DNA of 64,000 nt from a virus. Shown piece after piece: positions 28,674 through 56,641 of this stretch. The first letter of the stretch is position 1. The number at the start of each line of letters is the position of its first letter. The DNA lies in IMG/VR virus record IMGVR_UViG_3300020469_000008, positions 1 to 64,000 of that record. One strand, 5' to 3'. A program made the translations under genes and the position numbers. A model generated the notes under the pieces. It made no database searches. It was not told the DNA's origin and saw only the letters and a program-made list of their open reading frames with translations.

Positions 28674-29273
28674 ATGAGTAATTTGACGAATTCTAAACTT
28701 CGTAGAATGATTATGCAAGAATTAGCAAAAATGGTGGGTGAGGACGCTTTAGTTTCACCTGATAGAAGAGATTCATACAGAGACACAGGTTATCGCCCGC
28801 AAACAATGGAACCACACAGTTTTACTTTAACAAAGTACGGTGACAATTACGACGATTTCGGCGGTGGTGAAGAAGAGACTTGTGAACAATGCGGTAAAAT
28901 GTCATATGATTGTGAATGTTTTGAATCAGGCTGTGGATCCACCACCTCGAGTAGTGTCACACTGCAAGAAGGTGATTGTGGTTGTGGATCGTCGTCTAAT
29001 GACGGTACAGATTATTCAATAGATACAATGGAAATGCTTGACAGTGTCTTAGGGGATATGATACATACTCACCCTGACAAGCACAGTCACAACAATTATA
29101 TGGCGAAACCTGCGCTATACAAAGTTGCAAAGTATGCACAAAAGCTTTTACATATGATACCAGACGGGTATGAATTAGATGATTGGCAACGACACAAAAT
29201 TGCGCAGATATCTGATGACATATCTGAGGTATATCATTCACTAGATTACGATTTTCATGACGACGAGTATTAA
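28674..29273 (+). CDS. Small Cys/His-rich acidic protein with capsid-targeting-like leader
   Basis: 199 aa, good AGGAG before the ATG. The N-terminus KLRRMIMQELAKM (from residue 8) matches the leader shared by ten other proteins here, with [M]-Q-E at residues 14-16. The middle has CEQC, CEC and CGC clusters that could bind a metal, plus a His-rich stretch (MIHTHPDKHSHNNYM). The last 60 residues look helical and acidic. The stop overlaps the ATG of the PAP2-Fic gene by one base, so the two are co-translated. Function unknown. A virion-packaged partner of PAP2-Fic is my inference. Confidence 0.6.
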   Translation: MSNLTNSKLRRMIMQELAKMVGEDALVSPDRRDSYRDTGYRPQTMEPHSFTLTKYGDNYDDFGGGEEETCEQCGKMSYDCECFESGCGSTTSSSVTLQEGDCGCGSSSNDGTDYSIDTMEMLDSVLGDMIHTHPDKHSHNNYMAKPALYKVAKYAQKLLHMIPDGYELDDWQRHKIAQISDDISEVYHSLDYDFHDDEY

Positions 29274-41852: not shown

Positions 41853-42455
41853 ATGTCTGCAGAATTAAATGTTTTAAGAGAATGGACACCTATTTCTTGT
41901 TCAAAGGAAATGTTAAAGGAATCCCGCGAGCAATATGGAAAAATAATGTTGACGGGAATCATCCAAAAAGCAAACACCTTAAATCAAAATGGGCGAGTAT
42001 ATCCTAAGCCGATTCTAGAAAGAGAAATAATGAATTACCAAAAGATGATTCGTGAAAATAGAGCGCTGGGAGAATGCGATCATCCTGATTCGTCTGTAGT
42101 TGAATTAAAAAATGTATCACATATTGTGAGAGAAGCTTACATGCAAGGTGATGATGTCTATGGTAAGATAGAGATACTAGACACTCCTAGCGGTAAAATT
42201 ATACAGTCTTTAATTGAAAGTGGCATTACGCTTGGTATTTCATCACGTGGCGTAGGCTCAACTGTATCACAGGGTGGTAATCAGGTTGTACAAGACGATT
42301 TCCAGTTAATTTGTTTTGATATGGTGTCTGAACCGTCAACTCCCGGTGCATTTATGCTAAAGGAGCACAAAGTTTTAAGAAAAGATTTAGATAAAATTTT
42401 TAACCAAACAGATAAAATCGATAGAATGTTTAATGAGATTCTGAGGTGGGAATGA
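41853..42455 (+). CDS. gp21: Prohead core protease, T4 gp21-like
   Basis: 200 aa, starting at the ATG after AAAGGAGATATC rather than at an upstream in-frame start. The herpes/T4-type serine protease layout is visible: NGRVYPKPILEREI, then GECDHPDSSVVELKNVSHIV (catalytic His) and ITLGISSRGVGS (catalytic Ser). gp21-family enzymes assemble inside the prohead and cleave scaffold, capsid and internal proteins at [L/I]-x-E. That rule matters here because the same pattern ends the leader found on many small proteins. It overlaps the next gene in an ATGA. Confidence 0.88.
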   Translation: MSAELNVLREWTPISCSKEMLKESREQYGKIMLTGIIQKANTLNQNGRVYPKPILEREIMNYQKMIRENRALGECDHPDSSVVELKNVSHIVREAYMQGDDVYGKIEILDTPSGKIIQSLIESGITLGISSRGVGSTVSQGGNQVVQDDFQLICFDMVSEPSTPGAFMLKEHKVLRKDLDKIFNQTDKIDRMFNEILRWE

Positions 42456-42982
42456 ATAGTAAAAGCAAGACAGCACTCAAAAATATTGTTAAAGAATGTT
42501 TAATTGAAATATTGGCAGAAGGTTTGGTAGGTAATAACAAAGCTACACTTAGAGAAGCGAGAGAGCTTCGTGGGACCATACAAGAGTCATATGAGAAAAA
42601 CGCGAGTCGAAGAATTGTTGAAACAAAATTCCAACAACCAACCCAAGTTACAAAATCGCGACAGACTGCACAACGAAGACCGTCATACTTAGATAGTATT
42701 AAGATGGGTGTTGATTCAGCTTCAGAAAGACAATCAAGCATGATTAAAAATACAGTTAAAAATTTAACCAATGATCCAGTTATGAGTGATATATTAGCTG
42801 ATACTGCTATGACAACCCTACAAGAACAGAAAGAGGGGTCTAGACCATCTGGTCCAAGCGTAATGGCAGGGGGAGATCAAGCAGCAAAAATTGTTGATCA
42901 ATCGTCACCTGACGAGTTGTTCGGGGGTCAAGCTAGTAAATGGGCTGATTTGGCATTTTCACCATCAATTAGAAAGGGATAA
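42452..42982 (+). CDS. Head-assembly protein with leader-like N-terminus
   Basis: 176 aa; start at the ATG five bases after GAGG. The N-terminus SKTALKNIVKECLIEILAEG resembles the shared leader and contains V-K-E (13-15) and L-A-E|G (21-24), both good gp21-type sites. The rest is polar, with RRPSYLDSIKMGVDSASERQ in the middle and SSPDELFGGQASKWADLAFS near the end. Not recognised. Its place between protease and scaffold suggests a prohead core or internal head protein. Confidence 0.55.
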   Translation: MNSKSKTALKNIVKECLIEILAEGLVGNNKATLREARELRGTIQESYEKNASRRIVETKFQQPTQVTKSRQTAQRRPSYLDSIKMGVDSASERQSSMIKNTVKNLTNDPVMSDILADTAMTTLQEQKEGSRPSGPSVMAGGDQAAKIVDQSSPDELFGGQASKWADLAFSPSIRKG

Positions 42983-43026: not shown

Positions 43027-43239
43027 ATGCGTCGTATTATTAAGTTAACACCTGCAGCCATTCAAAGAATAATTGTAGAAGAAAAAGAAAAATTACAAGT
43101 TGAAAATAAGCAAAAGCTTTTAGAACAACTTAGACTACTTAAAAAGATTAAAAATAGACAAATTAATTCACTTAGTGAAGCCAAGCAGCTTCATAACATG
43201 AAGAAAAAATTAATTAAGTCGATTAAAGGTGAAAAGTAA
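43027..43239 (+). CDS. Small coiled-coil core protein with leader-like N-terminus
   Basis: 70 aa, very strong CCCCGGAGG ribosome site. The N-terminus LTPAAIQRIIVEEKEKL matches the leader (I-V-E at 16-18). The remainder is a Lys/Glu/Leu-rich helix (KLLEQLRLLKKIKNRQINSL). Size, charge and position recall T4 gp67, a small prohead-core protein cut to fragments by gp21. Homology is not shown. The stop overlaps the next ATG (TAATG). Confidence 0.55.
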   Translation: MRRIIKLTPAAIQRIIVEEKEKLQVENKQKLLEQLRLLKKIKNRQINSLSEAKQLHNMKKKLIKSIKGEK

Positions 43240-44379: not shown

Positions 44380-45852
44380 ATGAGTAAACTATTCGAAGAA
44401 GCAATAGCAGATGCAAAAAAACTCAAAGAGGTTGCAGAAGAAAACGCAAAAAAAGCGATTCTAGAATCTGTAACACCTCAAATTAGAGAGTTTATCGAAG
44501 AACAATTATTAGAAGAAAACAAAGAGGAAACATACTCGTTAAAAGATGAGAATAAAGACGAAATGTTTGATACTCTTGAAGAAGAAGTTTATCTTGACGA
44601 GAGCGCTTTGGCGTCCTTAGTTGAGCTAATTGGTGAAGATAATTTAGATTCCCTAAATGAGTCTAAGTCACAAGAAGCACTTTTTAGTGCTGTAAAAGGT
44701 GCAGTTGCCACAATGGACGACGACCAACGTGAACAACTGTTAAATTTATCGCACAAATTAAATGAAAGTGCTAATCATTTATCTAAGACAGAAAAAGGAG
44801 AAAACATGTCTAAGAAATATTATGAAGTTGACCTTAGAGCACTGAGGGAAGCATTAGAAGAAGACGCATATGATCAAACTGATGAGACTATGCATGAAGA
44901 AGAAACTGATATGGCAGAAAAGGCAGATGATGAGTTAAAAGAACTTTACGAAGAATTTTCTGCTTTACTAGAACAAGACGAAGAACCAGAAGCTGATGTA
45001 GAAACCCCAGAAGCGGGTGCAGCAGCAGAAGGCGGAGAAGACATGATTGCAAAAGACGAAGTTGAAGATGCAATTCGTGCTCTTTTAGATGATTTAGCAT
45101 TAGATCTTGAAGACGAAGGCGCAGGAGCAGAAGGTGGAGCTGCTGAGGCTCCAGCCGGCGATGAGGCACCTGAATTTGATTTAGCTGCTGCTATGGGCGG
45201 TGGTGATGATGAAGAAACTTTAAACGAAGTATTTGAAGTTGATCCTCGTGTTTTACGTCAAGAATTAGGAAGAATTAGAAGAATGGTTGCTGAAGGTAAA
45301 GTTGATCACCACTTCGGTGGTAAAGGTGGCGGAAACGCTGGAGTCGACGGATCTTACGGTGGTAAAGGAAAACAAAACGCTGGCGTTAACGGCGCATTTG
45401 GTGGTGGTAAGGAAGGACAAGATGCTTTCACAAACCCACCCCAGATAAACAAACTTAACGAGGCAATTCGCCAACTGAGACGTCAAAATCGATCTCAGAA
45501 CGAGAAACTGAACAAATACAGAGGAGCTGTTAATTCTCTTCGTGAACAGTTGGAAGATCTCAATTTATTCAATGCAAAGCTTTTGTATGTTAACAAATTG
45601 TTGCAAAACAAAGGCCTGAATGAGAGTCAGAAGAAGTCTGTTATTAAGGCTTTGGATGAAGCACAATCTTTGACTGAAGCAAAATCTTTGTATAAGTCAC
45701 TAACTGAAACGTTTAGTCGTGGCGGTGAAAGAAAAACAATCTCAGAATCTCGTGTTCTTGGAAGTTCTTCTCGACCAACCACTTCTTCTCAGTCAAGCGC
45801 AACATCTAATAACGGTGAGTTAAGTAGATGGCAACGTTTGGCCGGTTTATAA
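44380..45852 (+). CDS. gp22: Prohead scaffold protein, T4 gp22-like
   Basis: 490 aa, AGAGG before the ATG. Very acidic and helical. The C-terminal segment LEDLNLFNAKLLYVNKLLQN and the following SQKKSVIKALDEAQSLTEAK are the conserved part of gp22-type scaffolds. Internal repeats: YEVDLRALREALEED (about 147-161) and FEVDPRVLRQELGRI (about 285-299), and two GGKG..NAGV.G..GG units near 310-345. Many [L]-x-E sites (LNES, LNEA, LTEA, LTET, ILES) fit destruction by the prohead protease before packaging. T4 gp22 is about 270 aa, so this is much longer. A strong internal start is noted separately. Confidence 0.8.
   Translation: MSKLFEEAIADAKKLKEVAEENAKKAILESVTPQIREFIEEQLLEENKEETYSLKDENKDEMFDTLEEEVYLDESALASLVELIGEDNLDSLNESKSQEALFSAVKGAVATMDDDQREQLLNLSHKLNESANHLSKTEKGENMSKKYYEVDLRALREALEEDAYDQTDETMHEEETDMAEKADDELKELYEEFSALLEQDEEPEADVETPEAGAAAEGGEDMIAKDEVEDAIRALLDDLALDLEDEGAGAEGGAAEAPAGDEAPEFDLAAAMGGGDDEETLNEVFEVDPRVLRQELGRIRRMVAEGKVDHHFGGKGGGNAGVDGSYGGKGKQNAGVNGAFGGGKEGQDAFTNPPQINKLNEAIRQLRRQNRSQNEKLNKYRGAVNSLREQLEDLNLFNAKLLYVNKLLQNKGLNESQKKSVIKALDEAQSLTEAKSLYKSLTETFSRGGERKTISESRVLGSSSRPTTSSQSSATSNNGELSRWQRLAGL
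44794..44808 (+). promoter_or_regulatory. Strong internal ribosome site and in-frame ATG in the scaffold gene
   Basis: AAAGGAGAAAAC directly precedes an in-frame ATG at 44806 (residue 143 of the scaffold). Translation from here would give MSKKYYEVDLRALREALEED and about 348 aa, equal to the scaffold without its first 142 residues. The site is as good as those of the real genes around it. Nested scaffold products are known in other phages (for example lambda Nu3 within C), but use here is unproven. Confidence 0.5.
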
Positions 45853-45894: not shown

Positions 45895-47847
45895 ATGAGT
45901 AAGTCATTTACTTTGAATCAGTTGACTGAAGGTATCCGTGATCGTCACGTAGGCCAAGAAGCAACAAGAATTCAAGAAAAGTGGACCAGAACTGGTCTTC
46001 TTCGTGGTCTACAAAACCACGCTCGCGAAAACATGTCACGTTTACTTGAGAACCAAGCAGCTCAAGTACTTCGTGAAGCAAACACCTTAGGTGGCACATC
46101 TGGTGACGCTGGTCGTGTTGATGGATTTTCAAACATCGCATTCCCAATCGTTCGTCGTGTATTTGGTGGATTAGTTGCAAATGAATTGGTATCTATTCAG
46201 CCTATGTCTCTTCCAAGTGGACTCTTGTTCTACTTAGATTATACATACGGTTCTGATGTAGGTGGTGATGCAACTGCTTCAGGAAATGCATTGACAGCAA
46301 CTGGTGGATCAACTTATAATCAAGGTGATTCTATTTACAACAACCCAGGTGGAGCCGGTGTTCGTACTGGTTCTGACGCAACTGGTGGTCAATACGATCT
46401 AGTTGGTTCTGGTTACTCTAAAGTGCACGGTAATGTTGCATTTAGCGCAACTGGTAATGCTCTTAACGGTGCAATGGGTGGAGCTGCAAATCAATCTTTT
46501 ACAATTGCAGCAAATCTAACTACAAGTGGTGCTGATGGTAAACTACTTCATTTTGATCCACAACTTTCACGTGAAATCAGTGAAGGTACTAACAACTATC
46601 AAGTTCTTTTCCTCTCTGCTTCTCTCTTGCGCGAAGCTTCTGGAAGACAAAGAAGAGTTGATCCTACTTTGATTAAAGAAGTTGCTCTTTATTCTGAAAA
46701 CGGTACTAATGGACGAGGTCCCGGTAATTTAGTATCAGGACTGACTGTTCCTGGTAGTAACATTCAAGGTGGTAGCAACATTTGGAACGTTAGACGTCTT
46801 AATGAGCTAGGTACTTTGACACACAGTGCTGCTGGTACAACTTTCACTCCTGATCCTTTCGCATCAGTAAGTGCAACAGGAACTGTACTTAAGACAATCG
46901 TACAAGGTGCAGCTACTTCGATGGCAGCTGTCGATACAGGATTAAACTTGTCTGCTTCATTCCCAGTAGCTGATCAATTGTCTGAATCTGGAGACGCTGA
47001 TACTGGTTCTGTTGTGGTAATTCCATCATTCGAATCAAACTTTGCTTCTGAACCTACACCAGTAATTCCAGAAATTGATATCAAAATTGAGTCAATTGCT
47101 GTTACAGCTACAACTCGTAAGTTAAGAGCTCGTTGGTCACCAGAACTCGCACAAGATCTTAATGCTTATCACTCAATGGATGCTGAAGTTGAATTGACTC
47201 AAATCCTTTCTGAGCAAATCGCATTAGAAATTGATCGTGAAATTCTTAATGACCTTCTTGTTGAAGCGAAAGGTGCTAACTTCTTCTGGTCACGTGCTCC
47301 TGGTAAGTTCGTTAACAAGAGAAGTGGTGTTGCTGAAAACTTGGCGTCATCTCTTTCAACTGGACCACAATTTACTGGTACAGTTCGTGAGTGGTACGAA
47401 ACATTGGTTGAAACTATCATTGACGTTGCTAACGAAATCCATAGAAAGACTCTTCGTGGTTCTGCGAACTTTATCGTAGTTTCACCTGAAGTTGCTACTA
47501 TCTTCGAAGCTTCTGTATTGTACAAGCCAAGTGTTAAGATCGATGGTCAAGGTCAAGTTGCCTTAGGTAGCATTGGTGCTGAAGCTATTGGTTCTCTTTC
47601 TAACAGATTTACTGTTTACAAAGATCCTTACTTCCCACGCAACAAGATTCTTGTAGGATACAAAGGTGGTTCATATCTTGAGTCTGGATACGTCTATGCT
47701 CCATATGTACCGTTGATTGTAACTCCAACAATCTTCGCACCAGAAGACTTCACACCAAGAAAAGGTGTAATGACTCGTTACGGTAAGAAAATGGTTCGCG
47801 CCGACTTCTACGGAACAGTTACTTGCTTGGATATGGATATTATCTAA
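45895..47847 (+). CDS. gp23: Major capsid protein, T4 gp23-like
   Basis: 650 aa, AAAAAGGAG before the ATG. Recognised from PIVRRVFGGLVANELVSIQP, then VTATTRKLRARWSPELAQDL, EVELTQILSEQIALEIDREI and the end APEDFTPRKGVMTRYGKKMV. It forms the hexamers of the head shell (T4 gp23 is about 520 aa; the extra length lies in a Gly/Thr/Ser-rich insertion around residues 120-360). A propeptide is likely: L-R-E61|A62 fits the gp21 rule and lies close to the T4 cut after residue 65; L-T-E12|G13 also fits. Codon use is more regular (CGT, GGT, GCT) than in the tail genes, as expected for a very abundant protein. A terminator follows. Confidence 0.93.
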   Translation: MSKSFTLNQLTEGIRDRHVGQEATRIQEKWTRTGLLRGLQNHARENMSRLLENQAAQVLREANTLGGTSGDAGRVDGFSNIAFPIVRRVFGGLVANELVSIQPMSLPSGLLFYLDYTYGSDVGGDATASGNALTATGGSTYNQGDSIYNNPGGAGVRTGSDATGGQYDLVGSGYSKVHGNVAFSATGNALNGAMGGAANQSFTIAANLTTSGADGKLLHFDPQLSREISEGTNNYQVLFLSASLLREASGRQRRVDPTLIKEVALYSENGTNGRGPGNLVSGLTVPGSNIQGGSNIWNVRRLNELGTLTHSAAGTTFTPDPFASVSATGTVLKTIVQGAATSMAAVDTGLNLSASFPVADQLSESGDADTGSVVVIPSFESNFASEPTPVIPEIDIKIESIAVTATTRKLRARWSPELAQDLNAYHSMDAEVELTQILSEQIALEIDREILNDLLVEAKGANFFWSRAPGKFVNKRSGVAENLASSLSTGPQFTGTVREWYETLVETIIDVANEIHRKTLRGSANFIVVSPEVATIFEASVLYKPSVKIDGQGQVALGSIGAEAIGSLSNRFTVYKDPYFPRNKILVGYKGGSYLESGYVYAPYVPLIVTPTIFAPEDFTPRKGVMTRYGKKMVRADFYGTVTCLDMDII

Positions 47848-47955: not shown

Positions 47956-48270
47956 ATGAAAACCACAAGAAAGCAGCTACAAAAACTAATATTAGAGGCA
48001 ATGACAGGTATAGCATCGATGCCGTCAGCAGAAGGTGTTGATCAAATAGAAGAAAACCCAATTGTCAAAGATATTAATATTGAAATGATTGAGCAAATTT
48101 TAAATGAAGGCATGATAGCAATAGGTAATCAAGGTAATGACTACTATGCTGATACAAAAGCAATGATTGATAATGACAATACTATAATTCTTACTGCAGG
48201 ACCTCTAGATACACCATTTGCTGAAATAATAGTAAATTTTAAAGATTTAAGTCACATCACAAAAACTTAA
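47956..48270 (+). CDS. Small protein with capsid-targeting-like leader
   Basis: 104 aa; start at the second of two adjacent ATGs, five bases after AGAGG. N-terminus MKTTRKQLQKLILEAMTGI carries the leader with I-L-E14|A15, a perfect gp21-type site. The rest is acidic with an alpha/beta pattern (VKDINIEMIEQILNEGMIAI ... NTIILTAGPLDTPFAEIIVN). Function not recognised. First gene after the capsid terminator. Confidence 0.6.
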   Translation: MKTTRKQLQKLILEAMTGIASMPSAEGVDQIEENPIVKDINIEMIEQILNEGMIAIGNQGNDYYADTKAMIDNDNTIILTAGPLDTPFAEIIVNFKDLSHITKT

Positions 48271-48354
48271 AATTATTTTACATTACTTCTTGTTGGTATA
48301 GTGTATTACGTGCATATCGCACAATTCACACATTACATACACACAGGAGGGAAT

Positions 48355-48567
48355 ATGAGTGGAAATCCTTACAGCCTGCGAGCAGGTTTATTGTCACAAG
48401 CAGAAAGTATCTTATCACATAGATATCATTCAGAATACGAAAGAATTAGATGGTTATGTGACAGAAACTTAATCGATCCAAAGACAGTAACGTGGCCAGA
48501 ACCACCAAAGTCTGATGACATTATTGCTGAAGCAGAAAAATTGTATAAGTTTGTACAAACAAAGTAA
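48355..48567 (+). CDS. Small helical protein, unknown
   Basis: 70 aa; start at the ATG after CAGGAGGGAAT, not at an upstream in-frame ATG that lacks a ribosome site. MSGNPYSLRAGLLSQAESIL is followed by a helix and a Pro-rich turn (TVTWPEPPKSDDIIAEAEKL). I recall similar short proteins in other marine myoviruses but know no function. No leader motif, unlike its neighbours. Confidence 0.6.
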   Translation: MSGNPYSLRAGLLSQAESILSHRYHSEYERIRWLCDRNLIDPKTVTWPEPPKSDDIIAEAEKLYKFVQTK

Positions 48568-48583
48568 GAAAAATCATTTCTAT

Positions 48584-48594
48584 CTAAATAATTA
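48584..48594 (+). promoter_or_regulatory. Late-promoter-like element
   Basis: CTAAATAATTA, 23 bases before the ATG at 48617; identical to the element before the scaffold gene. T4-late-like core. Confidence 0.4.
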
Positions 48595-48616
48595 GTAATG
48601 ATATAATGGAGTTATT

Positions 48617-49075
48617 ATGCGTCTAGATAGAAACAGACTAAGAAAATTAATCTTACAAGAAATGACCAGTGCGATGGAATATGGCTCACGTGGGGAAGAT
48701 TCTGGCACCCTTGTTCGACCCCCGGAGCGTAGTAAATTCAGCACAGGTACCGGACCTCTTGGCAGACAAGAGATGAAAATATCTCCTGAACAACTAAGAT
48801 TGCAACAACAAAGTTATAGGTCAAATTTTCTACCGGCAGAAGAAGTAAATCCTGAGTTTGTCAGGCTTGTTGATGAAGCATCAGACGCGATATATGAGTT
48901 AGCTGAATTTATTGGTGGAACCGGGATACGCCCAGAAGACTTTCCAAAGTTCTATGAAGCTTGGCATCCATGGGAATCAGTAATGTCAAAACTACGTAAT
49001 CAGTATGGCAATAAGGTTGATGTTGAACTTAATAGTATGCGAATGAACCCTGATAAGATCCCTGTTTTTGAGTAG
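48617..49075 (+). CDS. Small protein with capsid-targeting-like leader
   Basis: 152 aa, TGGAG before the ATG. N-terminus MRLDRNRLRKLILQEMTSA carries the leader, with L-Q-E at 13-15. A polar, disordered stretch follows (residues about 20-75), then a helical C-terminal part (NPEFVRLVDEASDAIYELAE ... AWHPWESVMSKLRNQYGN). No known domain. Late-promoter-like element upstream. Confidence 0.6.
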   Translation: MRLDRNRLRKLILQEMTSAMEYGSRGEDSGTLVRPPERSKFSTGTGPLGRQEMKISPEQLRLQQQSYRSNFLPAEEVNPEFVRLVDEASDAIYELAEFIGGTGIRPEDFPKFYEAWHPWESVMSKLRNQYGNKVDVELNSMRMNPDKIPVFE

Positions 49076-49134
49076 TCATTAATAATTAATAACAAGCTTT
49101 GCAAATAGAGTATAGTTACTAATAGGAGGTAATT

Positions 49135-49791
49135 ATGCTCTTTTTATATTTTCTATTAACATTTGCAACTGGCCAGGAACCAGAAGTACCAGAAGTTACC
49201 GCAGATGAAACAATTGTTGTTGAGGCACATAGAGATTACGAGGTGTATGTTGCACCGACAGTTATGGATATTCAATCGACTGAGGTTGAAGCTGTAATGG
49301 CAAAGAAAACTGTTTTTAGTTATTCATCACGTTATGCCAACGGTGCAAAAGTTAAGAACGAAAGAGGTACAGGTTACGAAAACGTAACTATAAATCATAA
49401 AATAAAAGTATATGATGAAGACACAATAGAATATGTTTGGGACAACTGCAATTACAAACGTGAACCTAAGAAGTGTGCATATCAAAACAATCACATGTTA
49501 TTAGAAACAATTGTGACCGTTGATGATCATCAAATAGTTGTTAATATGATACTATACGATTCTGATTTGACTGTATTGGGATCGTCTGTTTATACAAGTG
49601 ATTCTAGGATTAGTTGGATTCGACAACAAGAAACAACAGTTATTCAACAACAAGGGATGATGGGTAGCCAAACAATGATTCATCAGCCCAAGGAAGAGTT
49701 ACCACTAAAATGGCTAATTCCTACAAATTTACTTGATAAACATATTTGGCAAGCTAGTGCGCTACTTTGGACAGGCGTAAGACTTAACTAA
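49135..49791 (+). CDS. Exported protein with signal peptide, unknown
   Basis: 218 aa, AATAGGAGG before the ATG. The first ~14 residues (MLFLYFLLTFATGQ) look like a short signal peptide. The mature part begins with an acidic Pro-rich stretch, then ETIVVEAHRDYEVYVAPTVM and a beta-rich region with two Cys (WDNCNYKREPKKCAYQNN) that could form a disulfide. Probably acts in the host envelope or periplasm. It lacks the leader. Its stop overlaps the end of the convergent - strand gene by eight bases. Confidence 0.6.
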   Translation: MLFLYFLLTFATGQEPEVPEVTADETIVVEAHRDYEVYVAPTVMDIQSTEVEAVMAKKTVFSYSSRYANGAKVKNERGTGYENVTINHKIKVYDEDTIEYVWDNCNYKREPKKCAYQNNHMLLETIVTVDDHQIVVNMILYDSDLTVLGSSVYTSDSRISWIRQQETTVIQQQGMMGSQTMIHQPKEELPLKWLIPTNLLDKHIWQASALLWTGVRLN

Positions 49792-50125
49792 TATATTTAC
49801 GCCAAGCGTGTCGCTTTCTTTTTGCTAAATAATCTTCGTCGTACATTTTGCGGTATGCTTCTTGTTCGAAAGGTATGTTCATGTAAGCTTCATCGTTGGT
49901 CATTCCTTTGACTTTACCTTTAAGCCAATACCATACATAGAGAATATAAAAGAATACCACCAGAAGTTCTTTCTGCTGTTCTATGTGTATTATTTCATGT
50001 CTAACAGTAACATCAGACATTTCATCTCTAGAAATAATAAAAGGAAAAAGAGTAATTGCACCAATATTAATAAATATTGAAAGATAAACAGGTAACTTGC
50101 TGTTTTGGATGATTATTGGTTTCAT
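49784..50125 (-). CDS. Small membrane-associated HExxH protein
   Basis: 113 aa, the only - strand gene here. On that strand the ATG follows AAAGGAGAAATCT, an excellent ribosome site. One hydrophobic segment lies near residues 11-31 (LPVYLSIFINIGAITLFPFI). Then VRHEIIHIEQQKELLVVFFY gives HExxH at 43-47, and PFEQEAYRKMYDEDYLAKRK supplies a downstream Glu. Short bacterial and phage proteins of this pattern (HExIHxxQQ, E.EAY) are known as uncharacterised putative zinc peptidases. Activity is unproven. Confidence 0.75.
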   Translation of the reverse strand: MKPIIIQNSKLPVYLSIFINIGAITLFPFIISRDEMSDVTVRHEIIHIEQQKELLVVFFYILYVWYWLKGKVKGMTNDEAYMNIPFEQEAYRKMYDEDYLAKRKRHAWRKYIS

Positions 50126-50155
50126 AGATTTCTCCTTTAACTTTGATAAGTGACA

Positions 50156-50167
50156 GTATAATTATAC
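50156..50167. promoter_or_regulatory. Palindrome GTATAATTATAC between divergent genes
   Basis: Perfect 12-bp palindrome in the 71-base gap between the - strand HExxH gene and the + strand gene at 50197. It gives a TATAAT box on both strands, so it may be a shared -10 region or an operator. No convincing -35 box was found at 17 bases on either side. Confidence 0.3.
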
Positions 50168-50196
50168 ATTGTCATACAAAAAATACGGAGGTTATG

Positions 50197-50397
50197 ATGC
50201 CAATAAAAAAGACAGCAGCAGAAGAATGTTGCGCAAAATGTGAAAAAGATGTTGCAGCACTCAGAAAAGAGATTGCTGCGCTTAGAAAAGAGCTTGCAAA
50301 GAAACCTGCAGGTGGTGCAGACCCACGAGTAGATGCGATTGTGCAGTTTTTAAAATCTAATTTTAACCAAAAAGCAGCAAAAGCAGGAATTAAATAA
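50197..50397 (+). CDS. Small coiled-coil protein
   Basis: 66 aa; start at the second of two adjacent ATGs, five bases after CGGAGG. ECCAKCEKDV carries three Cys, then two AALRKE[IL]A heptad-like repeats form a coiled coil, a PAGGAD linker, and a C-terminal helix (VDAIVQFLKSNFNQKAAKAG). Probably oligomeric. Function not recognised. Confidence 0.6.
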   Translation: MPIKKTAAEECCAKCEKDVAALRKEIAALRKELAKKPAGGADPRVDAIVQFLKSNFNQKAAKAGIK

Positions 50398-50406
50398 TAT
50401 ATATAA

Positions 50407-50451
50407 GCAGGCCCGGCACACAGCATAAAGGCGACCCCACCGTCGTGTCGG
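50407..50451 (+). other. GC-rich intergenic element with possible hairpin
   Basis: Between 50397 and the gene at 50491. By hand count 31 of these 45 bases are G or C, against a clearly AT-rich background. CCGGCAC (50413-50419) can pair with GTGTCGG (50445-50451), seven pairs with one G-U, leaving a 25-base loop. There is no T run, so it is not a standard terminator. A structured 5' leader or small RNA is possible. Confidence 0.3.
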
Positions 50452-50490
50452 AATCTTGTGGACAAGTATCTCAAAATTAAGGAGGAAATT

Positions 50491-51000
50491 ATGCCAAAGG
50501 TAACATATACAAATTCGAAAGGATTGTTTCAAGAAACAGGTACAGCGGACGTTAATCTGTCCGGACAAGGAGCATTGTTCGGTCAGCTTTTAAAAATCAA
50601 GACTGTCACAGCCACAACAGTGTTGCGCGATACAGACTCAGGAAAAATTGTTTTAGTTAATCCAGCTGGGACCACACTACTTACATTACCAAGCGTGGCA
50701 AATACAGGATGGACTATCACAATAATTCTTACAGAAGACGCAGCTGGATCTGATCAAGGTATGGGACAAAAAGTTAATATTGACTTAGGTTCAGGCGCTA
50801 ACCTAGCCAATATCGGACAAATACACGAAGTCGATGGGGCCGCCGGCGATTACGCAGTAGCCAATGATGACTTTATTAATTTCTCAGCTAATGCTTCACC
50901 TGGTGACAGAGTCGATATATTTTCAGACGGATCTAGATGGCACATTTACGGTCTAGTAAAGGATGCTACAGAGGCTGTATTCAACACAGCAGCTGGATAA
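50491..51000 (+). CDS. Virion-type beta protein, copy A of a tandem pair
   Basis: 169 aa, AAGGAGGAAATT before the ATG. MPKVTYTNSKGLFQETGTAD, then VNLSGQGALFGQL, then beta strands rich in Thr/Gly, ending DRVDIFSDGSRWHIYGLVKD. The next gene encodes a clear paralogue over its full length. The repeated beta architecture resembles small phage decoration or fibre-tip proteins, but I cannot name the family. Its place in the late region after the capsid gene is compatible with a head or tail decoration protein. Confidence 0.6.
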   Translation: MPKVTYTNSKGLFQETGTADVNLSGQGALFGQLLKIKTVTATTVLRDTDSGKIVLVNPAGTTLLTLPSVANTGWTITIILTEDAAGSDQGMGQKVNIDLGSGANLANIGQIHEVDGAAGDYAVANDDFINFSANASPGDRVDIFSDGSRWHIYGLVKDATEAVFNTAAG

Positions 51001-51012
51001 TAGGAGATTAAC

Positions 51013-51522
51013 ATGCCAAAAGTAACGTATACAAGTTCGAAAGGATTATTTCAAGAAAGCGGAACTGGTGAAGTAAATTTATCAGGTCAGGGTGTTTTGT
51101 TCGGTCAATTAGCAAAAACTGAAGCAATTACTGCTACTACAGCGTTGGCGTCAACTGATACCGGTAAAATATTTTTTGTCGATCCAACAGCAGCAACATT
51201 AATTACTCTACCTGCGCTAGCCTCTTCTTTAAAAGGTTGGTATTGTCGATTTGTGCTCACGGAGAATGAGACAGGAAACGCACAAGCAATGGATGCAAAA
51301 GTTAATATTGACTTGGGCGCTGGAACAGCAAACGTCGGTCAACTTCATGAACTAGACGGCGGGGCTGGAGATTATTTGGTCTCCGGAGACGATTTTGTAA
51401 CATTCTCTGCCAATGCATCAGCAGGAGACAGAGTTGATATCTTTACAGACGGTAATAGATATTATGTTTACGGTTTTGTCAAAGAAATTGCTGAATGTAA
51501 TTTTCATACCGCAGCTAGATAA
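51013..51522 (+). CDS. Virion-type beta protein, copy B of a tandem pair
   Basis: 169 aa, same length as copy A. Matching blocks include VTYT.SKGLFQE.GT.[DE]VNLSGQG.LFGQL, KVNIDLG.G, and DRVDIF.DG.R...YG.VK. AGGAG before the ATG. The copies differ mostly in the middle (VANTGWTITIILTEDAAGSD versus LASSLKGWYCRFVLTENETG), as expected for an old duplication with divergent surface loops. Followed by a terminator. Confidence 0.6.
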   Translation: MPKVTYTSSKGLFQESGTGEVNLSGQGVLFGQLAKTEAITATTALASTDTGKIFFVDPTAATLITLPALASSLKGWYCRFVLTENETGNAQAMDAKVNIDLGAGTANVGQLHELDGGAGDYLVSGDDFVTFSANASAGDRVDIFTDGNRYYVYGFVKEIAECNFHTAAR

Positions 51523-51542
51523 TATCTACATCCTCTATAACT

Positions 51543-51568
51543 AAAGGCACCATTTCGGTGCCTTTTTT
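51543..51568 (+). terminator. Rho-independent terminator after the tandem pair
   Basis: AAAGGCACC / GGTGCCTTT, a perfect 9-bp stem with a five-base loop (ATTTC), running into a T tract. Confidence 0.9.
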
Positions 51569-51644
51569 ATTTTGTAACAAAGCAAAACTAGTGAGACCTT
51601 TGAGCTGTAATTGACCTACTTATACACATCTCTCGGAGATCGAT

Positions 51645-52061
51645 ATGAAGTTAGTTTTTGCTTTGTTTTGTTTAGTCGCAGGACATCTATTAGCGTGGTT
51701 GCAATTAAACGGTCCAATCTTCAATGACTGGTGGAAAGATAACATTTGGATAAGTGCACTATGTATTTCTCCAATGATTTTCTTTTTTAGCATGACATAC
51801 TGGAGTATCACTTACGAGTGGTTGCAAGCTGTGTGGTCAGTTAAATTTATCGCTTATGGCGTAAATATTGTAGTTTTTTCAATTTGTGCCTACTATTTTC
51901 TTGGTGAATCGTTATTTACTATTAGAAACGTTGTTAGTATCATATTTGCAACGTTAATGATTTTATCACAAGCATATTTACCAAAGACGAGTATATTCGG
52001 TGCCGGACAAGAAACCCCAGAGAATGTCGCTGTTAGCGATGGTGTTGATCATTCTGATTAG
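51645..52061 (+). CDS. Four-helix membrane protein resembling half of a DMT/SMR transporter
   Basis: 138 aa, CGGAGATCGAT before the ATG. Four hydrophobic segments: about 1-18, 36-54, 66-87 and 92-110. The third and fourth (FIAYGVNIVVFSICAYYFLG, then ESLFTIRNVVSIIFATLMIL) resemble the C-terminal 'GE.LT..q..g..li..gv' hairpin of small multidrug/EamA-type transporters. I recall short proteins of this type in marine phages and bacteria. The transport substrate is unknown and function is not proven. The C-terminal tail is polar. Confidence 0.6.
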   Translation: MKLVFALFCLVAGHLLAWLQLNGPIFNDWWKDNIWISALCISPMIFFFSMTYWSITYEWLQAVWSVKFIAYGVNIVVFSICAYYFLGESLFTIRNVVSIIFATLMILSQAYLPKTSIFGAGQETPENVAVSDGVDHSD

Positions 52062-52203
52062 CATTTGGTTAACTTATGAGTTTGTAAGGTATGATGTTCA
52101 ATGTTTCTTGAGAAAATACAAAATAAATAAGATAATTAGTAGTGTCTATAATAAAGGAGTAGAACTATGTCATCAATTAATAGAGATAAAATCAGAAAAT
52201 TAA
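52024..52203 (+). CDS. Possible small single-span membrane protein
   Basis: 59 aa from the ATG at 52024, overlapping the end of the membrane protein before it and the start of the gene at 52167. MSLLAMVLIILISIWLTYEF is a clean transmembrane segment followed by a basic tail. The ribosome site is poor, a late-promoter-like element and the next gene's ribosome site lie inside it, and it could be chance. Reported with low confidence. Confidence 0.3.
   Translation: MSLLAMVLIILISIWLTYEFVRYDVQCFLRKYKINKIISSVYNKGVELCHQLIEIKSEN
52123..52132 (+). promoter_or_regulatory. Late-promoter-like element
   Basis: ATAAATAAGA, 35 bases before the ATG at 52167 and at the head of the run of leader-bearing genes. 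Identical to the elements at 23530 and 45855. Confidence 0.4.
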
Positions 52204-52463
52204 TTTTAAAAGAGTTTAAAATGATGGGAATGGCTGATATGGGCCACGGCGGGATGAAGCCAATGGGAATGGTGCACACTGTTGATCACGGCCATGAAGC
52301 TAGTCACGGTCATTCTGTGATGAAATCAGCTAAAAGTTGTGTATCGCGCGAAGATTGCTGTGCTGCAATTATGTGTTTGGTTGAATGTTGCGAATGCCCA
52401 ATCACAAAGCAAGTAATTATGGAATGCTGCCAAGAAATCATGTCTGGTCAACACGATCATTAA
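52167..52463 (+). CDS. Cys/His/Met-rich protein with capsid-targeting-like leader
   Basis: 98 aa, AAAGGAG before the ATG. Leader: INRDKIRKLILKEFKMMG, with L-K-E at 14-16. The rest holds eight His, many Met (MMGMADMGHGGMKPMGMVH) and nine Cys (CVSREDCCAAIMCLVECCEC...ECCQE). This composition suggests binding of copper, zinc or another soft metal; the Cys pattern also recalls four-helix Cys-rich copper-storage proteins, a loose comparison. The stop overlaps the next ATG (TAATG). Confidence 0.6.
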   Translation: MSSINRDKIRKLILKEFKMMGMADMGHGGMKPMGMVHTVDHGHEASHGHSVMKSAKSCVSREDCCAAIMCLVECCECPITKQVIMECCQEIMSGQHDH

Positions 52464-53839
52464 TGAAAATTACTCGACGCCAGCTCCAAATGTTAATACA
52501 GGAGGAGATACGACAGGTGAAACCGGGTTGTTATAAAGTATACCCGAAGAAACCAAAGCGTGGCAAGAAGCGTCGTAAAGCATTATCTAAAAAGTGCAAG
52601 ACTAAGAAAGCAGCAAAGAAGCATTTGGCAGCTATTGAAATTAGTAAATCGATGCGTGAGGATGACAATCCTTGTTGGGATGGTCACAGGCCAGGTGCTC
52701 AAACCGGACAAAAAACAAAAATCGGAAAGAGTGGAAATCGCGTTGCAAATTGTGAAAAGATAAAAGAATCAATTCTTTTAGAGTCCAAATATGAACAACT
52801 CATATCACAATTACCTGGGTTGTCGTTAGTTGTTACTGAAGATATGCCGCGCGGGTTTGCATTAGATTTGCAATACGATGATTACATGATCGCATCTGCA
52901 GAGATAGTAGCTCTTTCTGTAAACCCAGGTGAACCATGTATTCCTGAGACAATGTCAGTTAGTACTATTTATACCTCGCCAGATTATCAGAATTTAGGGA
53001 TTGGTGAACTTTTACTTGATCTGATATTCTACTATGCTAGCACGTTAGACGGAGGAAAAGGACGAGGTATAACAACAGATTTGCGAGGTGGTAACACACC
53101 AATTATTAATTACATAATTCAAAGAGCATTACAAGATCCTGCATACTACAAGCAGACCACCAAAGCCGGTAATGACGAGATGGACTTTTTTGAAAAAACT
53201 AGCGACCCGGATGATGATTGCTACTCCGAATTCCTTGACGGTAAAGGTATATACTGGTTTATTAGTCAAGGTATGTCCGAAGAAGAAGCATTCGAAAAAG
53301 TTGAAATGACAGATGGAGATTTAGGCACGACTAGCTCTTGGCGAAAGAGAGGTATTGAATCTATAAAGCCTATATATGACATGCTCACACAAAGACAGGG
53401 TGCTGATGTACTTTATAGACCAGTCATTAGAAGTCGACAGTTCCAAGATGCTTATCGTAATACACCTACTCCTGAAGAAATACGTTCATTTCAAAGAGGT
53501 AAGAAACTAAAAGAACGCAAAGAACCAAGAAAAGGCACCGGTAAAAAACCAAAAGGTAGTACTAGGCGATTATATACCGATGAGAATCCCAAGGATACTG
53601 TCTCTGTTAAGTTTCGAACTAAGTCTGATATACAGGACACTTTATCAAAAAAAAGCTTTAAGAGTAAAGAACATAAGCGGCAGTCGCAGATAATTAATCT
53701 CATACATCAGCGCGTTCGTGTTGCTTACAAAAATGCAAAAGATCCTGCAACGAAAAAACGCTTAAAGCTTGCGTATGATTATGCTAAACAGAGAAAAGAA
53801 GCCAGTAAGCTTAAAACAAAAAAAATGAGGAAGAAATGA
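52463..53839 (+). CDS. GNAT-type acetyltransferase with leader and basic tails
   Basis: 458 aa; start at the ATG overlapping the previous stop, which exposes the leader MKITRRQLQMLIQEEIRQV (I-Q-E at 12-14). Residues about 20-60 are very basic (KPKRGKKRRKALSKKCKTKK). Residues about 125-235 look like a GNAT domain: SVSTIYTSPDYQNLGIGELL, whose Q-x-x-G-I-G loop and following helix are the acetyl-CoA-binding motif A. The C-terminal 120 residues are again basic and helical. The basic tails suit packing with DNA. Substrate unknown. It overlaps the next gene by four bases (ATGA). Confidence 0.65.
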   Translation: MKITRRQLQMLIQEEIRQVKPGCYKVYPKKPKRGKKRRKALSKKCKTKKAAKKHLAAIEISKSMREDDNPCWDGHRPGAQTGQKTKIGKSGNRVANCEKIKESILLESKYEQLISQLPGLSLVVTEDMPRGFALDLQYDDYMIASAEIVALSVNPGEPCIPETMSVSTIYTSPDYQNLGIGELLLDLIFYYASTLDGGKGRGITTDLRGGNTPIINYIIQRALQDPAYYKQTTKAGNDEMDFFEKTSDPDDDCYSEFLDGKGIYWFISQGMSEEEAFEKVEMTDGDLGTTSSWRKRGIESIKPIYDMLTQRQGADVLYRPVIRSRQFQDAYRNTPTPEEIRSFQRGKKLKERKEPRKGTGKKPKGSTRRLYTDENPKDTVSVKFRTKSDIQDTLSKKSFKSKEHKRQSQIINLIHQRVRVAYKNAKDPATKKRLKLAYDYAKQRKEASKLKTKKMRKK

Positions 53840-54342
53840 AAATATCAAAAAAATACCTGAGAAGATTGATAAAAGAATCGATTAACGAGTCCAACTTACC
53901 TCCGGGAACAAGCCAATCAGATATCGATGATTATTATTATGATGGCGATGATGAGACTAGACAGACAGGATTATCAATTGAAATGGCTTTTTATGATCCT
54001 TCTCATCCTCTTTTCAGAGGCTCACCGACAGGTATGTACGGCGATATTGAATTTTCTGATTACGGTGCTGACAGTGCTGATGAGCTATCTGAAGAGCAAT
54101 ATCGAAAAATAGAAGCTGACGTTATGGCTATCGTAAATCATCCAGCATCTAGACTTGAAGCCAACGAAATATATGAAGCTTCGCAGGAATTTATCGATGC
54201 AATGCAAGGAAACAGTAGTAATACAGGCACGTACTTTTATCCTGTGTTCGAAGAGGATGATAGTTACGATGGCCCTGATGATTTTGATTATGATCCTTAT
54301 GAAACTGCAGGTAATTTTGGACCAGATATGTTTTCAAGGTAA
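53836..54342 (+). CDS. Acidic protein with capsid-targeting-like leader
   Basis: 168 aa, ATGA overlap with the GNAT gene. Leader MKISKKYLRRLIKESINES with I-K-E14|S15. After the basic leader the protein is very acidic (DIDDYYYDGDDETRQTGLSI ... FEEDDSYDGPDDFDYDPYET). No domain recognised. The sharp charge contrast between leader and body suggests the leader is a separable signal. Confidence 0.6.
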   Translation: MKISKKYLRRLIKESINESNLPPGTSQSDIDDYYYDGDDETRQTGLSIEMAFYDPSHPLFRGSPTGMYGDIEFSDYGADSADELSEEQYRKIEADVMAIVNHPASRLEANEIYEASQEFIDAMQGNSSNTGTYFYPVFEEDDSYDGPDDFDYDPYETAGNFGPDMFSR

Positions 54343-54351
54343 GCTTAAAAT

Positions 54352-55152
54352 ATGAAAGTTACACGACGTAAACTTAAAATGATTATTGAGTCTTTCCTTC
54401 ATGAAGAAAAGGAAAAACTTGAGAAAGATCACGGCAAAAAATATGTTTGCCCAAGCTGTGGTCATGTTCATGATTCTAAAGAAGATATTAATGCCCTCTG
54501 GTCAGGAAAAAAGTGTGTAAAGTGCGGTACAAAATTTGACCTAAAGACCGGTAAAGTTCCATCAGGTAAAGGCAAGGGGCAAAAGTGGGGAATTCATGCT
54601 AATACTAAAAGTGAGTCAAAATTAAGAATGCTTCGCGAAAAAAGACATCGTAGAAAAAGAAAACTAAGAGAAACTGCGAAAGAAACTGAATGTCCTACAG
54701 CGACAACAGACATTAGTGTTAACACAGCTAATCGCGACCGAGCTCGCAAACTTGACTGGATTATATACGGCCCTTTAAATGTAGAATTTCCGGGAAAGTA
54801 TTGGGAAAAGATATCAAAAAAGTGGGGAACAGACGTTGAAGCAGCAAAGAAGTCAAACTGTGGTGTTTGTGTTGCTTTTGATCGATCCCCGAAGATGGTT
54901 GATGAGTGCATACCTGCAATAACGTCTGAACCTGTTGCAGATGAGTTCGGTGTTTTAGGGTATTGCTGGATGCACCACTTTAAGTGTCACAGTGCAAGAA
55001 CATGTAACACTTGGGCAGCTGGTGGTCCGATTAAGACTGATGAAGCGTCAGGCGAATGGTTTGAACGTAATAAAGACGGTGCGTTAAAGAAAGATCCAAT
55101 CGATCCTAATATTTATAGGGACGATACTAATACTTCACAGGAGACAGAATGA
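54352..55152 (+). CDS. Zinc-ribbon plus Cys-cluster protein with leader
   Basis: 266 aa. Leader MKVTRRKLKMIIESFLHEE with I-I-E13|S14. A zinc ribbon follows (C33-x2-C36, C55-x2-C58), then a very basic linker (LRMLREKRHRRKRKLRE). The C-terminal half has a second cluster: C170-x2-C173, C186, C205, C212, C218, in SNCGVCVAFDRSP and GYCWMHHFKCHSARTCNTW. It could bind zinc or an iron-sulfur cluster; the aromatic GYCW context recalls high-potential iron-sulfur proteins, but spacing is not a clear match. It overlaps the next gene by four bases. Confidence 0.6.
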   Translation: MKVTRRKLKMIIESFLHEEKEKLEKDHGKKYVCPSCGHVHDSKEDINALWSGKKCVKCGTKFDLKTGKVPSGKGKGQKWGIHANTKSESKLRMLREKRHRRKRKLRETAKETECPTATTDISVNTANRDRARKLDWIIYGPLNVEFPGKYWEKISKKWGTDVEAAKKSNCGVCVAFDRSPKMVDECIPAITSEPVADEFGVLGYCWMHHFKCHSARTCNTWAAGGPIKTDEASGEWFERNKDGALKKDPIDPNIYRDDTNTSQETE

Positions 55153-55826
55153 AAATATCAAGAAGAAGAATTAGACAACTTATAAGAGAATCCCGCGAAG
55201 AACATATCCAGGGAATTAGAAGTAAACTAGTTAGATTAAATGACGAATTAGAAAACAGACAAGAGGCACTTGATGATTTAAACTATCAATCACAAAGTAT
55301 GATGGATTTTTATTCAGATGACCCATATGCTGGTAGAGATGAGATGATGGCCGGTGACCCGATTAGAGATCAAATATATGACATCGAAAACAAGATAACA
55401 TTGTTGCAAAATCAACTAGATGCTTTAGAAGCTGCTAATGGTGGCCCGGTAGGTCAACTACCAAGGGGTAGAATATTCGAAGAAGTTTCTGATCTGACTG
55501 ATGAAAAACAAAAAGAAATAGATGACGCAGTTGCTGATTATTTAGCCAAAGAAGGCGGAGCAGCATCTGAAGAGGGAACCGAAGATATTGTTCGTGACAA
55601 GGTTGATGGCATTGATGCAAAATCGTATCTTTCAAACAATGAAAGATTTAAGCAGCTAACAGTAAATAACGACCCAATGGACTATTATGATACAACTTTA
55701 ACTGAAGCTAGAGTCTTTATTAGAGAGAAATTAGAAAAAATTGGTTTTTACAAGAAGTACGGTTACGGATTAGATGATATACCAAACAAAACAAAAGCGC
55801 ATGACGATATCATAGGGCACACGTGA
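55149..55826 (+). CDS. Leader-bearing coiled-coil protein, cut short by in-frame TGA
   Basis: 225 aa to the TGA at 55824-55826. Leader MKISRRRIRQLIRESREEH with I-R-E14|S15, then a coiled coil (KLVRLNDELENRQEALDDLN ... ENKITLLQNQLDALEAANGG) and an acidic helical part. The same frame stays open after the TGA to 56237, and that distal stop, not this one, overlaps the next gene in the ATGA arrangement typical of this operon. So the gene was, or still is, read as one 362-codon frame plus its final stop. A TGG-to-TGA change (Trp) would explain it. Confidence 0.65.
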   Translation: MKISRRRIRQLIRESREEHIQGIRSKLVRLNDELENRQEALDDLNYQSQSMMDFYSDDPYAGRDEMMAGDPIRDQIYDIENKITLLQNQLDALEAANGGPVGQLPRGRIFEEVSDLTDEKQKEIDDAVADYLAKEGGAASEEGTEDIVRDKVDGIDAKSYLSNNERFKQLTVNNDPMDYYDTTLTEARVFIREKLEKIGFYKKYGYGLDDIPNKTKAHDDIIGHT

Positions 55827-56237
55827 CTGACCCACGTTAAGCGGAAGGATTCTGCTTTAAATGAAGTTGGTGAAGTTTTATGGCACAGCCTTGATGAAAG
55901 TGGTCACATATCTGTTTATGACGTCGAATGGTCAGACGGTACAATTGAAAGAGATATCCCAGCAATTTTATTAGAAAAAGTTAAAGATAGTAATGCTGTC
56001 GACGAGGTTCACGAGGCACACGGTGTAGACGGACATAGACTAGATTCTGCTATCGATGAGAGAAAGTACAAGAAAAAGAAAAAAACAAAGAAACGTAAAA
56101 AGAAAAAGCATAGTTTGTACCCATATGTGTTTGGGTTTGGCTATCACCACGATGCTGAAAATTATGATTATGATATCGGTGGTGATTATGGAGATTTTGG
56201 AGGCGGCTTCGGTGACGGAGGCGGTGGTGGAGAATGA
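55827..56237 (+). pseudogene. Distal part of the 55149 frame beyond the in-frame TGA
   Basis: In the same frame, 136 sense codons run to the TGA at 56235-56237. No ATG or GTG starts the segment: the first such codon is a GTG very near the end, so it is not a separate gene. It encodes a small-barrel-like part (GEVLWHSLDESGHISVYDVE, then WSDGTIERDIPAILLEKV), a Lys-rich linker (KYKKKKKTKKRKKKKH) and a Gly/Asp-rich tail. Coding character and conserved wording argue against random sequence. It may be lost by mutation, made by readthrough, or split by a sequencing error. Confidence 0.6.
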
Positions 56238-56641
56238 AAATAGATAAAGATAGATTACGTAGAATTATAAGTGAAAGTATTGATGAAAATATGGGCACTG
56301 CGATGAAAATTAAAACAGATTTACTTTCAACTTATGATCGTTCGTATGTTTCACAAGCATATGAGCTGTGTGATGCATTAGGACTTGATTTTGCACAAAT
56401 GGTGAGAGAAATGTTAAGTCAAAAGATTGATAGTATAGATTTTCAGAATCACGTTCATGAATGGGTTAACGAGTTACTAGCAATTTTTCATACTGGTAAG
56501 GAAAACGACTTTTACATTGAAGATGAAAAATTCGAATCAGATGTTCAAATGGATTTTGCATTTAAAACTATCGCTGATATAACTAAAAATCTTGAAGATT
56601 ATTATGTCAATTTATTTGTAGCGATAGGTCAAGGTCGATAA
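56234..56641 (+). CDS. Small helical protein with capsid-targeting-like leader
   Basis: 135 aa, ATGA overlap with the frame before it. Leader MKIDKDRLRRIISESIDEN with I-S-E14|S15. The body is helical (SQAYELCDALGLDFAQMVRE ... FQNHVHEWVNELLAIFHTGK) with an acidic surface. No domain recognised. Last gene of the leader-bearing run; the next 102 bases hold no gene and lead into the neck genes. Confidence 0.6.
   Translation: MKIDKDRLRRIISESIDENMGTAMKIKTDLLSTYDRSYVSQAYELCDALGLDFAQMVREMLSQKIDSIDFQNHVHEWVNELLAIFHTGKENDFYIEDEKFESDVQMDFAFKTIADITKNLEDYYVNLFVAIGQGR

What the first reader, a model, noticed from the sequence alone, without database searches (positions are those of the whole stretch)
47956..56641. 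A shared N-terminal leader marks at least 11 unrelated proteins: candidate capsid-targeting signal and virion cargo system
Proteins starting at 28674, 42452, 43027, 47956, 48617, 52167, 52463, 53836, 54352, 55149 and 56234 share an N-terminal pattern close to M-K-[IV]-[ST]-[RK]-[RK]-x-[LI]-x-x-[LI]-I-x-E, then diverge completely. Examples: MKISKKYLRRLIKESINES and MKIDKDRLRRIISESIDEN. All end the motif in [LIVM]-x-E at residues 12-23. In five the next residue is Ala, Ser or Gly, the cleavage rule known for T4 gp21, and a gp21-type protease is encoded at 41853. In T4, internal proteins carry short N-terminal capsid-targeting sequences cut at such a site. Ten of the 11 genes lie in or just after the head cluster, two of them among the prohead core genes. 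Inference: the leader docks proteins on the scaffold or portal, is trimmed during maturation, and the bodies are injected with the DNA. The motif may occur in other marine phages; I cannot check novelty.
Basis: partly seen in the sequence, partly recalled or inferred. Interest (0 to 1): 0.9.

Follow-up and report, generated by a model that had tools for sequence, protein, structure and literature searches.

The report
Shared packaging-type leader on phage proteins
About one gene in ten of this uncultured T4-related phage, and of its relatives, begins with the same ~15-residue helical tag followed by unrelated, fast-changing proteins; the tag copies the start of a protein encoded next to the head protease, so it is most likely an address label that loads many proteins into the virus head.

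Summary
In the 202-kb genome, 28-35 of 269 genes carry the leader (consensus MKITRRQLRKLIxE; shuffled control 0). The densest run (146.8-157.6 kb) lies outside the window. Relatives carry 21-31 each. Exact pattern scans of IMG/VR hit only contigs of this Far-T4-like lineage; a scrambled pattern hit none, and 84,980 cellular genomes gave no hit. Nine of 11 hit contigs of at least 100 kb encode a gp21-type protease; the other two are fragments that begin in the tail genes.

First, the gene just after gp21 (42452) begins with the same kind of leader in 45 related copies: a predicted helix ending in a gp21-type site (LxE|G/A/S in 43 of 45), then a disordered linker. Second, leaders also occur inside fused ORFs, at least 11 without a start codon.

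Best reading: a capsid-targeting sequence that works like T4's but is unrelated in sequence, probably borrowed from the core protein, heading a large variable cargo set. Packaging, trimming and injection were not shown; no virion data exist. Only about a third of leaders have strict LxE|A/S/G at the first site.

The parts
41853..42455 (+). gp21-type prohead (head maturation) protease
   Evidence: phrog_207 head maturation protease E 3.7e-53
42452..42982 (+). gp21-adjacent core-type protein; leader helix residues 3-26 with conserved EILAE|G; family of 45 in related head modules
   Evidence: AlphaFold helix 3-26, pLDDT ~91 over residues 11-20, then disordered linker
43027..43239 (+). small basic protein (70 aa, pI 10.6) in the prohead-core gene run; weak leader
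   Evidence: score 10.7 bits; ortholog in G009; pI
44380..45852 (+). putative acidic scaffold protein (pI 4.45), position of T4 gp22
   Evidence: position before the capsid gene, orthologs in W01, W02 and W03; pI
45895..47847 (+). major capsid protein (gp23 type) with conserved predicted cleavage site VLRE|AN
   Evidence: phrog_138 E 2.6e-75; alignment of relatives shows LxE|[AS]
28674..29273 (+). weak leader MSNLTNSKLRRMIMQELAKMV; zinc-cluster-like body
   Evidence: 5.7 bits; ortholog in G002 has the leader
47956..48270 (+). leader MKTTRKQLQKLILE|A, body unknown
   Evidence: 28.6 bits
48617..49075 (+). leader MRLDRNRLRKLILQE, body unknown
   Evidence: 18.7 bits
52167..52463 (+). leader MSSINRDKIRKLILKEF, Cys/His-rich body
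   Evidence: 17.7 bits; orthologs in G009 and G002 keep a leader-like N-terminus
52463..53839 (+). leader MKITRRQLQMLIQE, basic linker domain, weak GNAT-like domain; ortholog in G002 has LysM and lysozyme instead
   Evidence: 38.9 bits; Acetyltransf_1 E 0.0043, below Pfam cut-off; G002 24664 Phage_lysozyme 2.3e-16 and LysM 4.6e-13
53836..54342 (+). leader MKISKKYLRRLIKE|S, acidic body unknown
   Evidence: 30.9 bits
54352..55152 (+). leader MKVTRRKLKMIIESFLHE|E, zinc-ribbon-like body
   Evidence: 25.8 bits; weak zinc-ribbon matches below cut-off
55149..55826 (+). leader MKISRRRIRQLIRE|S, coiled-coil-like body
   Evidence: 33.2 bits
56234..56641 (+). leader MKIDKDRLRRIISE|S, body unknown
   Evidence: 30.1 bits

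Best explanation
The leader is a capsid-targeting sequence. A short basic helix (about 14-22 residues) docks unrelated proteins onto the growing prohead core, the way the leader-bearing core protein encoded beside gp21 is presumed to do. The gp21-type protease then probably cuts at an LxE site at the end of the helix, leaving the bodies inside the head, from where they can leave with the DNA. Shown here: the shared peptide, its restriction to a gp21/gp23-encoding lineage, its likeness to the N-terminus of the gp21-adjacent protein, the helix-plus-linker prediction, the LxE pile-up, and the hypervariable bodies. Inferred: docking partner, packaging, cleavage, ejection.
For: 28-31 leader genes in each of G000, G009, G003 and G028 and 21 in G002, null 0. 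Exact pattern in 34 IMG/VR contigs, all sharing genes with this clade; scrambled pattern 0 hits; 0 hits in 84,980 cellular genomes. gp21 and gp23 found together in leader contigs that include the head module; the second pattern variant gives the same, with all four hit contigs over 100 kb gp21-positive. gp21-adjacent core family: K10, K14, E15 and E19 invariant, E23 96%, G24 93%; 43 of 45 have [LIVMF]xE[GAS]; 24 of 45 are hit by the cargo-trained matrix, which did not include them. AlphaFold helix 3-26, then linker. LxE counts peak at residues 13-15, 18-19 and 21-22, then drop to background. Leaders without a proximal A/S/G site more often have a downstream one (37% vs 21%, p=0.004). Bodies with a homolog in relatives: 7-33% against 49-80% for other genes. 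Leaders lack signal-peptide hydrophobicity (2 of 320 above 1.6), yet bodies include LysM, lysozyme and L,D-transpeptidase domains. [quoted passage not shown] the first 30 residues of P1 DarB suffice for capsid targeting (PMC9024508).
Against: No virion proteome was found for this clade. Strict LxE|[ASG] near the end of the leader is present in 117 of 320; E is the commonest residue after E14. Bodies are acidic (median pI 4.8), while T4 internal proteins are basic (from memory). The isolate whose capsid protein matches over the greatest length (Microcystis phage Mel-JY01) has gp21/gp23 but no leader cargo. The restriction to gp21 phages is confounded with shared ancestry. No similarity to the T4 CTS itself.
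Confidence: 0.7

Rival explanations
1. The leader proteins are transient prohead-core (scaffold) components, assembled through the leader helix and then degraded by gp21 like T4 gp22/gp67/gp68; they are not delivered cargo.
For: The leader is most conserved on the gp21-adjacent core protein; in W03 (LR756508) about a dozen small leader-type genes flank gp21; many leader proteins are small and acidic.
Against: Many bodies are large (up to 934 aa) and some have enzymatic or wall-binding domains; the bodies turn over between close relatives, unlike a structural core; LxE sites return to background after about residue 24, so the bodies are not dotted with cleavage sites.
Confidence: 0.12
2. The leader docks the proteins onto a host or phage complex in the infected cell (for example a replication or transcription compartment) and has nothing to do with the head.
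For: A basic helical tag could bind many partners; leader genes are mostly far from head genes in the genome.
Against: The same kind of leader heads the gene beside gp21 in most head modules examined; LxE sites accumulate at its end; T4 internal-protein genes also lie far from the head genes.
Confidence: 0.12
3. The leader is an element of DNA or translation (recombination site for gene cassettes, or a strong start region), not a protein signal.
For: Same-codon use between leaders exceeds expectation (0.57 vs 0.48 with 5'-end codon usage in G000), so some leaders were probably copied recently.
Against: Synonymous codons vary widely, for example CGA CGC against AGA AGA; at least 11 internal leaders have no start codon; the peptide is conserved across genomes.
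Confidence: 0.04

Closest known systems
T4 capsid-targeting sequence (CTS) of internal proteins IPI-III and Alt
   Same: Short N-terminal tag starting MK, shared by otherwise different proteins, ending in an LxE-type site for gp21; bodies highly diverse between relatives; genes away from the head cluster.
   Different: No sequence similarity (T4 MKTYQEFIAE|A scores -21.8 bits); 21-31 proteins per genome rather than about four (T4 number from memory and PMC5694885); bodies acidic; leaders also occur inside fused ORFs.
T4 prohead core genes next to gp21 (gp67, gp68, gp22)
   Same: The leader-bearing 42452 family sits in the same gene run beside gp21 and has conserved LxE sites.
   Different: No similarity to gp67/gp68 was seen by eye; orthology was not tested.
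P1 DarB N-terminal packaging signal and phiKZ/SPN3US propeptides
   Same: N-terminal head targeting of ejected proteins, with cleavage after E in the giant phages (PMC9024508, PMC5694885).
   Different: P1 Dar proteins show no shared N-terminal consensus; giant-phage propeptides are mostly longer than 100 residues.
Far-T4 phages (Rhodothermus RM378 and uncultivated relatives)
   Same: This phage and its relatives have RM378-, immuto- and Mel-JY01-like gp23 and gp21.
   Different: A text search of the 2015 description of Far-T4 genomes shows no mention of such leaders.

Membership tests
T4-type capsid-targeting sequence | Short N-terminal peptide shared by otherwise unrelated proteins of one phage | tested here: met
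   283 similar N-terminal pairs vs 2 shuffled; 28 genes vs 0; bodies unrelated
T4-type capsid-targeting sequence | Phage encodes a gp21-type protease and gp23-type capsid | tested here: met
   phrog_207 and phrog_138 in the window and in relatives that contain a head module
T4-type capsid-targeting sequence | Leader ends in a gp21 cleavage site [LI]xE|[AGS] | tested here: inconclusive
   LxE at the leader end is general, partly by construction of the matrix; strict P1' A/S/G at E13-15 in 117/320, anywhere in residues 10-40 in 170/320 vs 54 in shuffles; core family 43/45
T4-type capsid-targeting sequence | Sequence homology to the T4 CTS MKTYQEFIAEA | tested here: not met
   T4 IPI-III score about -21.5 to -21.8 bits; whole T4 genome has no profile match
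T4-type capsid-targeting sequence | Protein present in the virion with the leader removed | not testable with these tools
   No virion proteome for the clade was found
T4-type capsid-targeting sequence | Leader alone packages a foreign protein | not testable with these tools
   Needs an experiment
Sec signal peptide | Hydrophobic core in the first ~30 residues | tested here: not met
   Only 2 of 320 exceed hydropathy 1.6 over 15 residues

The most novel reading that the evidence does not exclude
A whole lineage of abundant uncultured T4-type phages has turned the docking helix of a prohead core protein into a universal virion address. It loads some 20-30 unrelated, rapidly exchanged effector proteins per phage, some as polyproteins with an internal leader per segment that the head protease would separate. 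This would be one of the largest predicted virion-delivered effector sets of any phage.
Probability: 0.4. Interest if true: 0.88.

Novelty: new variant of a known kind. Interest (0 to 1): 0.72.

Why it matters
If true, hundreds of unannotated proteins in common aquatic phages can be assigned at once to a class: carried in the virion and delivered at the start of infection. That is where anti-defence and takeover factors are expected. It also gives a sequence handle for finding such effectors in metagenomes and a candidate tag for loading foreign proteins into T4-type heads.

Tried and rejected
Chance similarity. DNA-level or translation element. Signal peptide. T4-like late promoter TATAAATA ahead of leader genes: none found, uninformative. 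LxE at C-termini of leader proteins: no enrichment. Basic bodies as in T4 internal proteins: not so. An ADP-ribosyltransferase-like body (G009 68324, G024 1-1019) and a kinase-like body (G009 141888, G030 51789) were suspected by eye; Pfam, PHROGs and PDB sequence searches did not confirm them and the fold was poor, so neither is claimed. G003 and G020 looked like gp21-less exceptions; they are fragments that start at tail tube and sheath genes of the same clade. tblastn with the bare leader against phage records has little power at this length. The amphipathic-moment test on the leader was not significant.

Full report
What was checked. The window is the first 64 kb of a 202,054-bp virus record. 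The rest was fetched, so the leader could be sought in the whole genome. A score matrix made from leaders of this genome, allowing only N-terminal placement, finds 27 ORFs at 15 bits or more against 0.15 in shuffled sequences. A test that uses no matrix, comparing N-terminal 20-mers of all genes, gives 283 similar pairs against 2 after shuffling. With a simple gene caller 28 of 269 genes carry it, and about 35 with weak forms. Only one pair of bodies shows homology. The densest run is at 146.8-157.6 kb, outside the window.

Distribution. An exact degenerate pattern for the leader found 34 of 2.9 million IMG/VR contigs. A pattern with the same residues in another order found none, and 84,980 cellular genomes gave none. 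Every one of the 34 contigs shares genes with this phage's clade. Those containing the head module have both gp21 (phrog_207) and gp23 (phrog_138). Two large exceptions, G003 and G020, begin in the tail genes of the same clade and so lack the head region. A second variant (MKIxExxLRxIIxEE) gave 24 contigs, again with gp21 in all four that are over 100 kb. The lineage appears to be the one known as Far-T4, since its nearest characterised capsid relatives include Rhodothermus phage RM378. Close genomes carry 21-31 leader genes each. The huge phage LR756508 carries a divergent form, with about a dozen copies flanking gp21. Microcystis phage Mel-JY01 has none as cargo. Flavobacterium phage immuto has shorter leader families of its own. 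T4, KVP40 and HTVC008M have no profile match; P-SSM2 and phiKZ have one marginal match each (E 0.03 and 0.05).

Link to the head. The gene directly after gp21 (42452 here) was found in 45 relatives. Its N-terminus, K[LI][ST]RxxLKxIVKECLxEILxE|G, is its most conserved part: mean column identity 0.71 over residues 1-25, 0.17 over 26-60 and 0.45 beyond. Forty-three of 45 have [LIVMF]xE[GAS] at its end. The matrix trained only on cargo leaders recognises 24 of the 45. AlphaFold on 36 relatives predicts one helix (residues 3-26) followed by a disordered linker. So the cargo leader looks like the N-terminal helix of a prohead core protein. The major capsid protein of the clade keeps an LxE|[AS] site at the place where T4 gp23 is cut, so the gp21 rule is expected to hold here.

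Cleavage evidence. Over 320 non-redundant leader proteins, LxE ends fall at residues 13-15, 18-19 and 21-22 and drop to background from about residue 24. Residue 15, which the matrix does not use, is A, S or G in 38% of cases with an LxE in the motif, roughly twice the level of those residues in the bodies. Leaders lacking such a site more often have a second one downstream (37% vs 21%, p=0.004). This supports cutting at the leader's end but does not prove it, and nearly half of the leaders have no textbook site in residues 10-40. Twenty-nine leaders lie inside longer ORFs, at least 11 of them without a start codon, and LxE[GSAQ] precedes them more often than in control windows (11 vs 4.4, highest of 300 controls 10; small sample). 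These look like polyproteins with one leader per segment.

Cargo. Leader bodies are the fast-changing part of these genomes: 7-33% have a homolog in the other three large genomes compared, against 49-80% of other genes. Of 136 bodies scanned few match any family: L,D-transpeptidase (146839 of this genome), lysozyme plus LysM (G002 24664), DUF192, 5'-deoxyribonucleotidase and an endonuclease-VII-type match; a LysM protein was found besides (G003 99204). The window protein 52463 and its G002 ortholog share the leader and the basic domain but carry different C-terminal parts (a weak GNAT match against lysozyme). Leaders lack the hydrophobic core of a signal peptide, so wall-acting bodies would need another route out of the cytoplasm, such as the virion. 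None of the families matched is a tail or core replication family.

Level of selection. Synonymous codons differ widely between leaders, so the peptide is what is kept. The modest excess of identical codons suggests some recent copying.

Mechanism and limits. The evidence favours a capsid-targeting sequence that works like that of T4 and P1 DarB but is not related to the T4 CTS in sequence. Docking partner, packaging, trimming and ejection remain inferences. The link to gp21 is confounded with common descent, since all carriers belong to one lineage. No published description of this leader was found, within the limits of an open-access library.

Noticed in passing
genome 130512-131045 (L004:9512-10045): A second kind of N-terminus, MRINFDRLSxLAGLP...RRSLxE|[GASN], occurs once in each of at least nine clade genomes, with a conserved LxE site about 10-15 residues after LAG; similar LAG-type starts occur in immuto and LR756508. 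Possibly another protease-trimmed head protein.
   Followed up: partly
G003:129455-130576, G015:96418-97275, G005:5916-6632, G032:429-1538 and others: ORFs with two or three in-frame leaders, several without a start codon at the inner leader.
   Followed up: partly
genome about 187.0-191.3 kb (L007): Run of about a dozen small genes beginning MKxGDLV..., apparently a paralogous array unrelated to the leader.
   Followed up: no
50491-51000 and 51013-51522: Tandem paralogs (MPKVTYT[NS]SKGLFQE[TS]GT...) just after the head genes; possibly decoration proteins.
   Followed up: no
G028:139110-141020 and 141082-142965: Two adjacent major capsid protein genes in one relative.
   Followed up: no
W02 (immuto) 1803, 103762, 117587, 118588, 125197: An isolated relative has its own repeated leader (MENFDLKKFLVENKLT...), and the gene right after gp21 begins similarly (MENNFDIHKW...): the same plan with a different tag.
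   Followed up: partly
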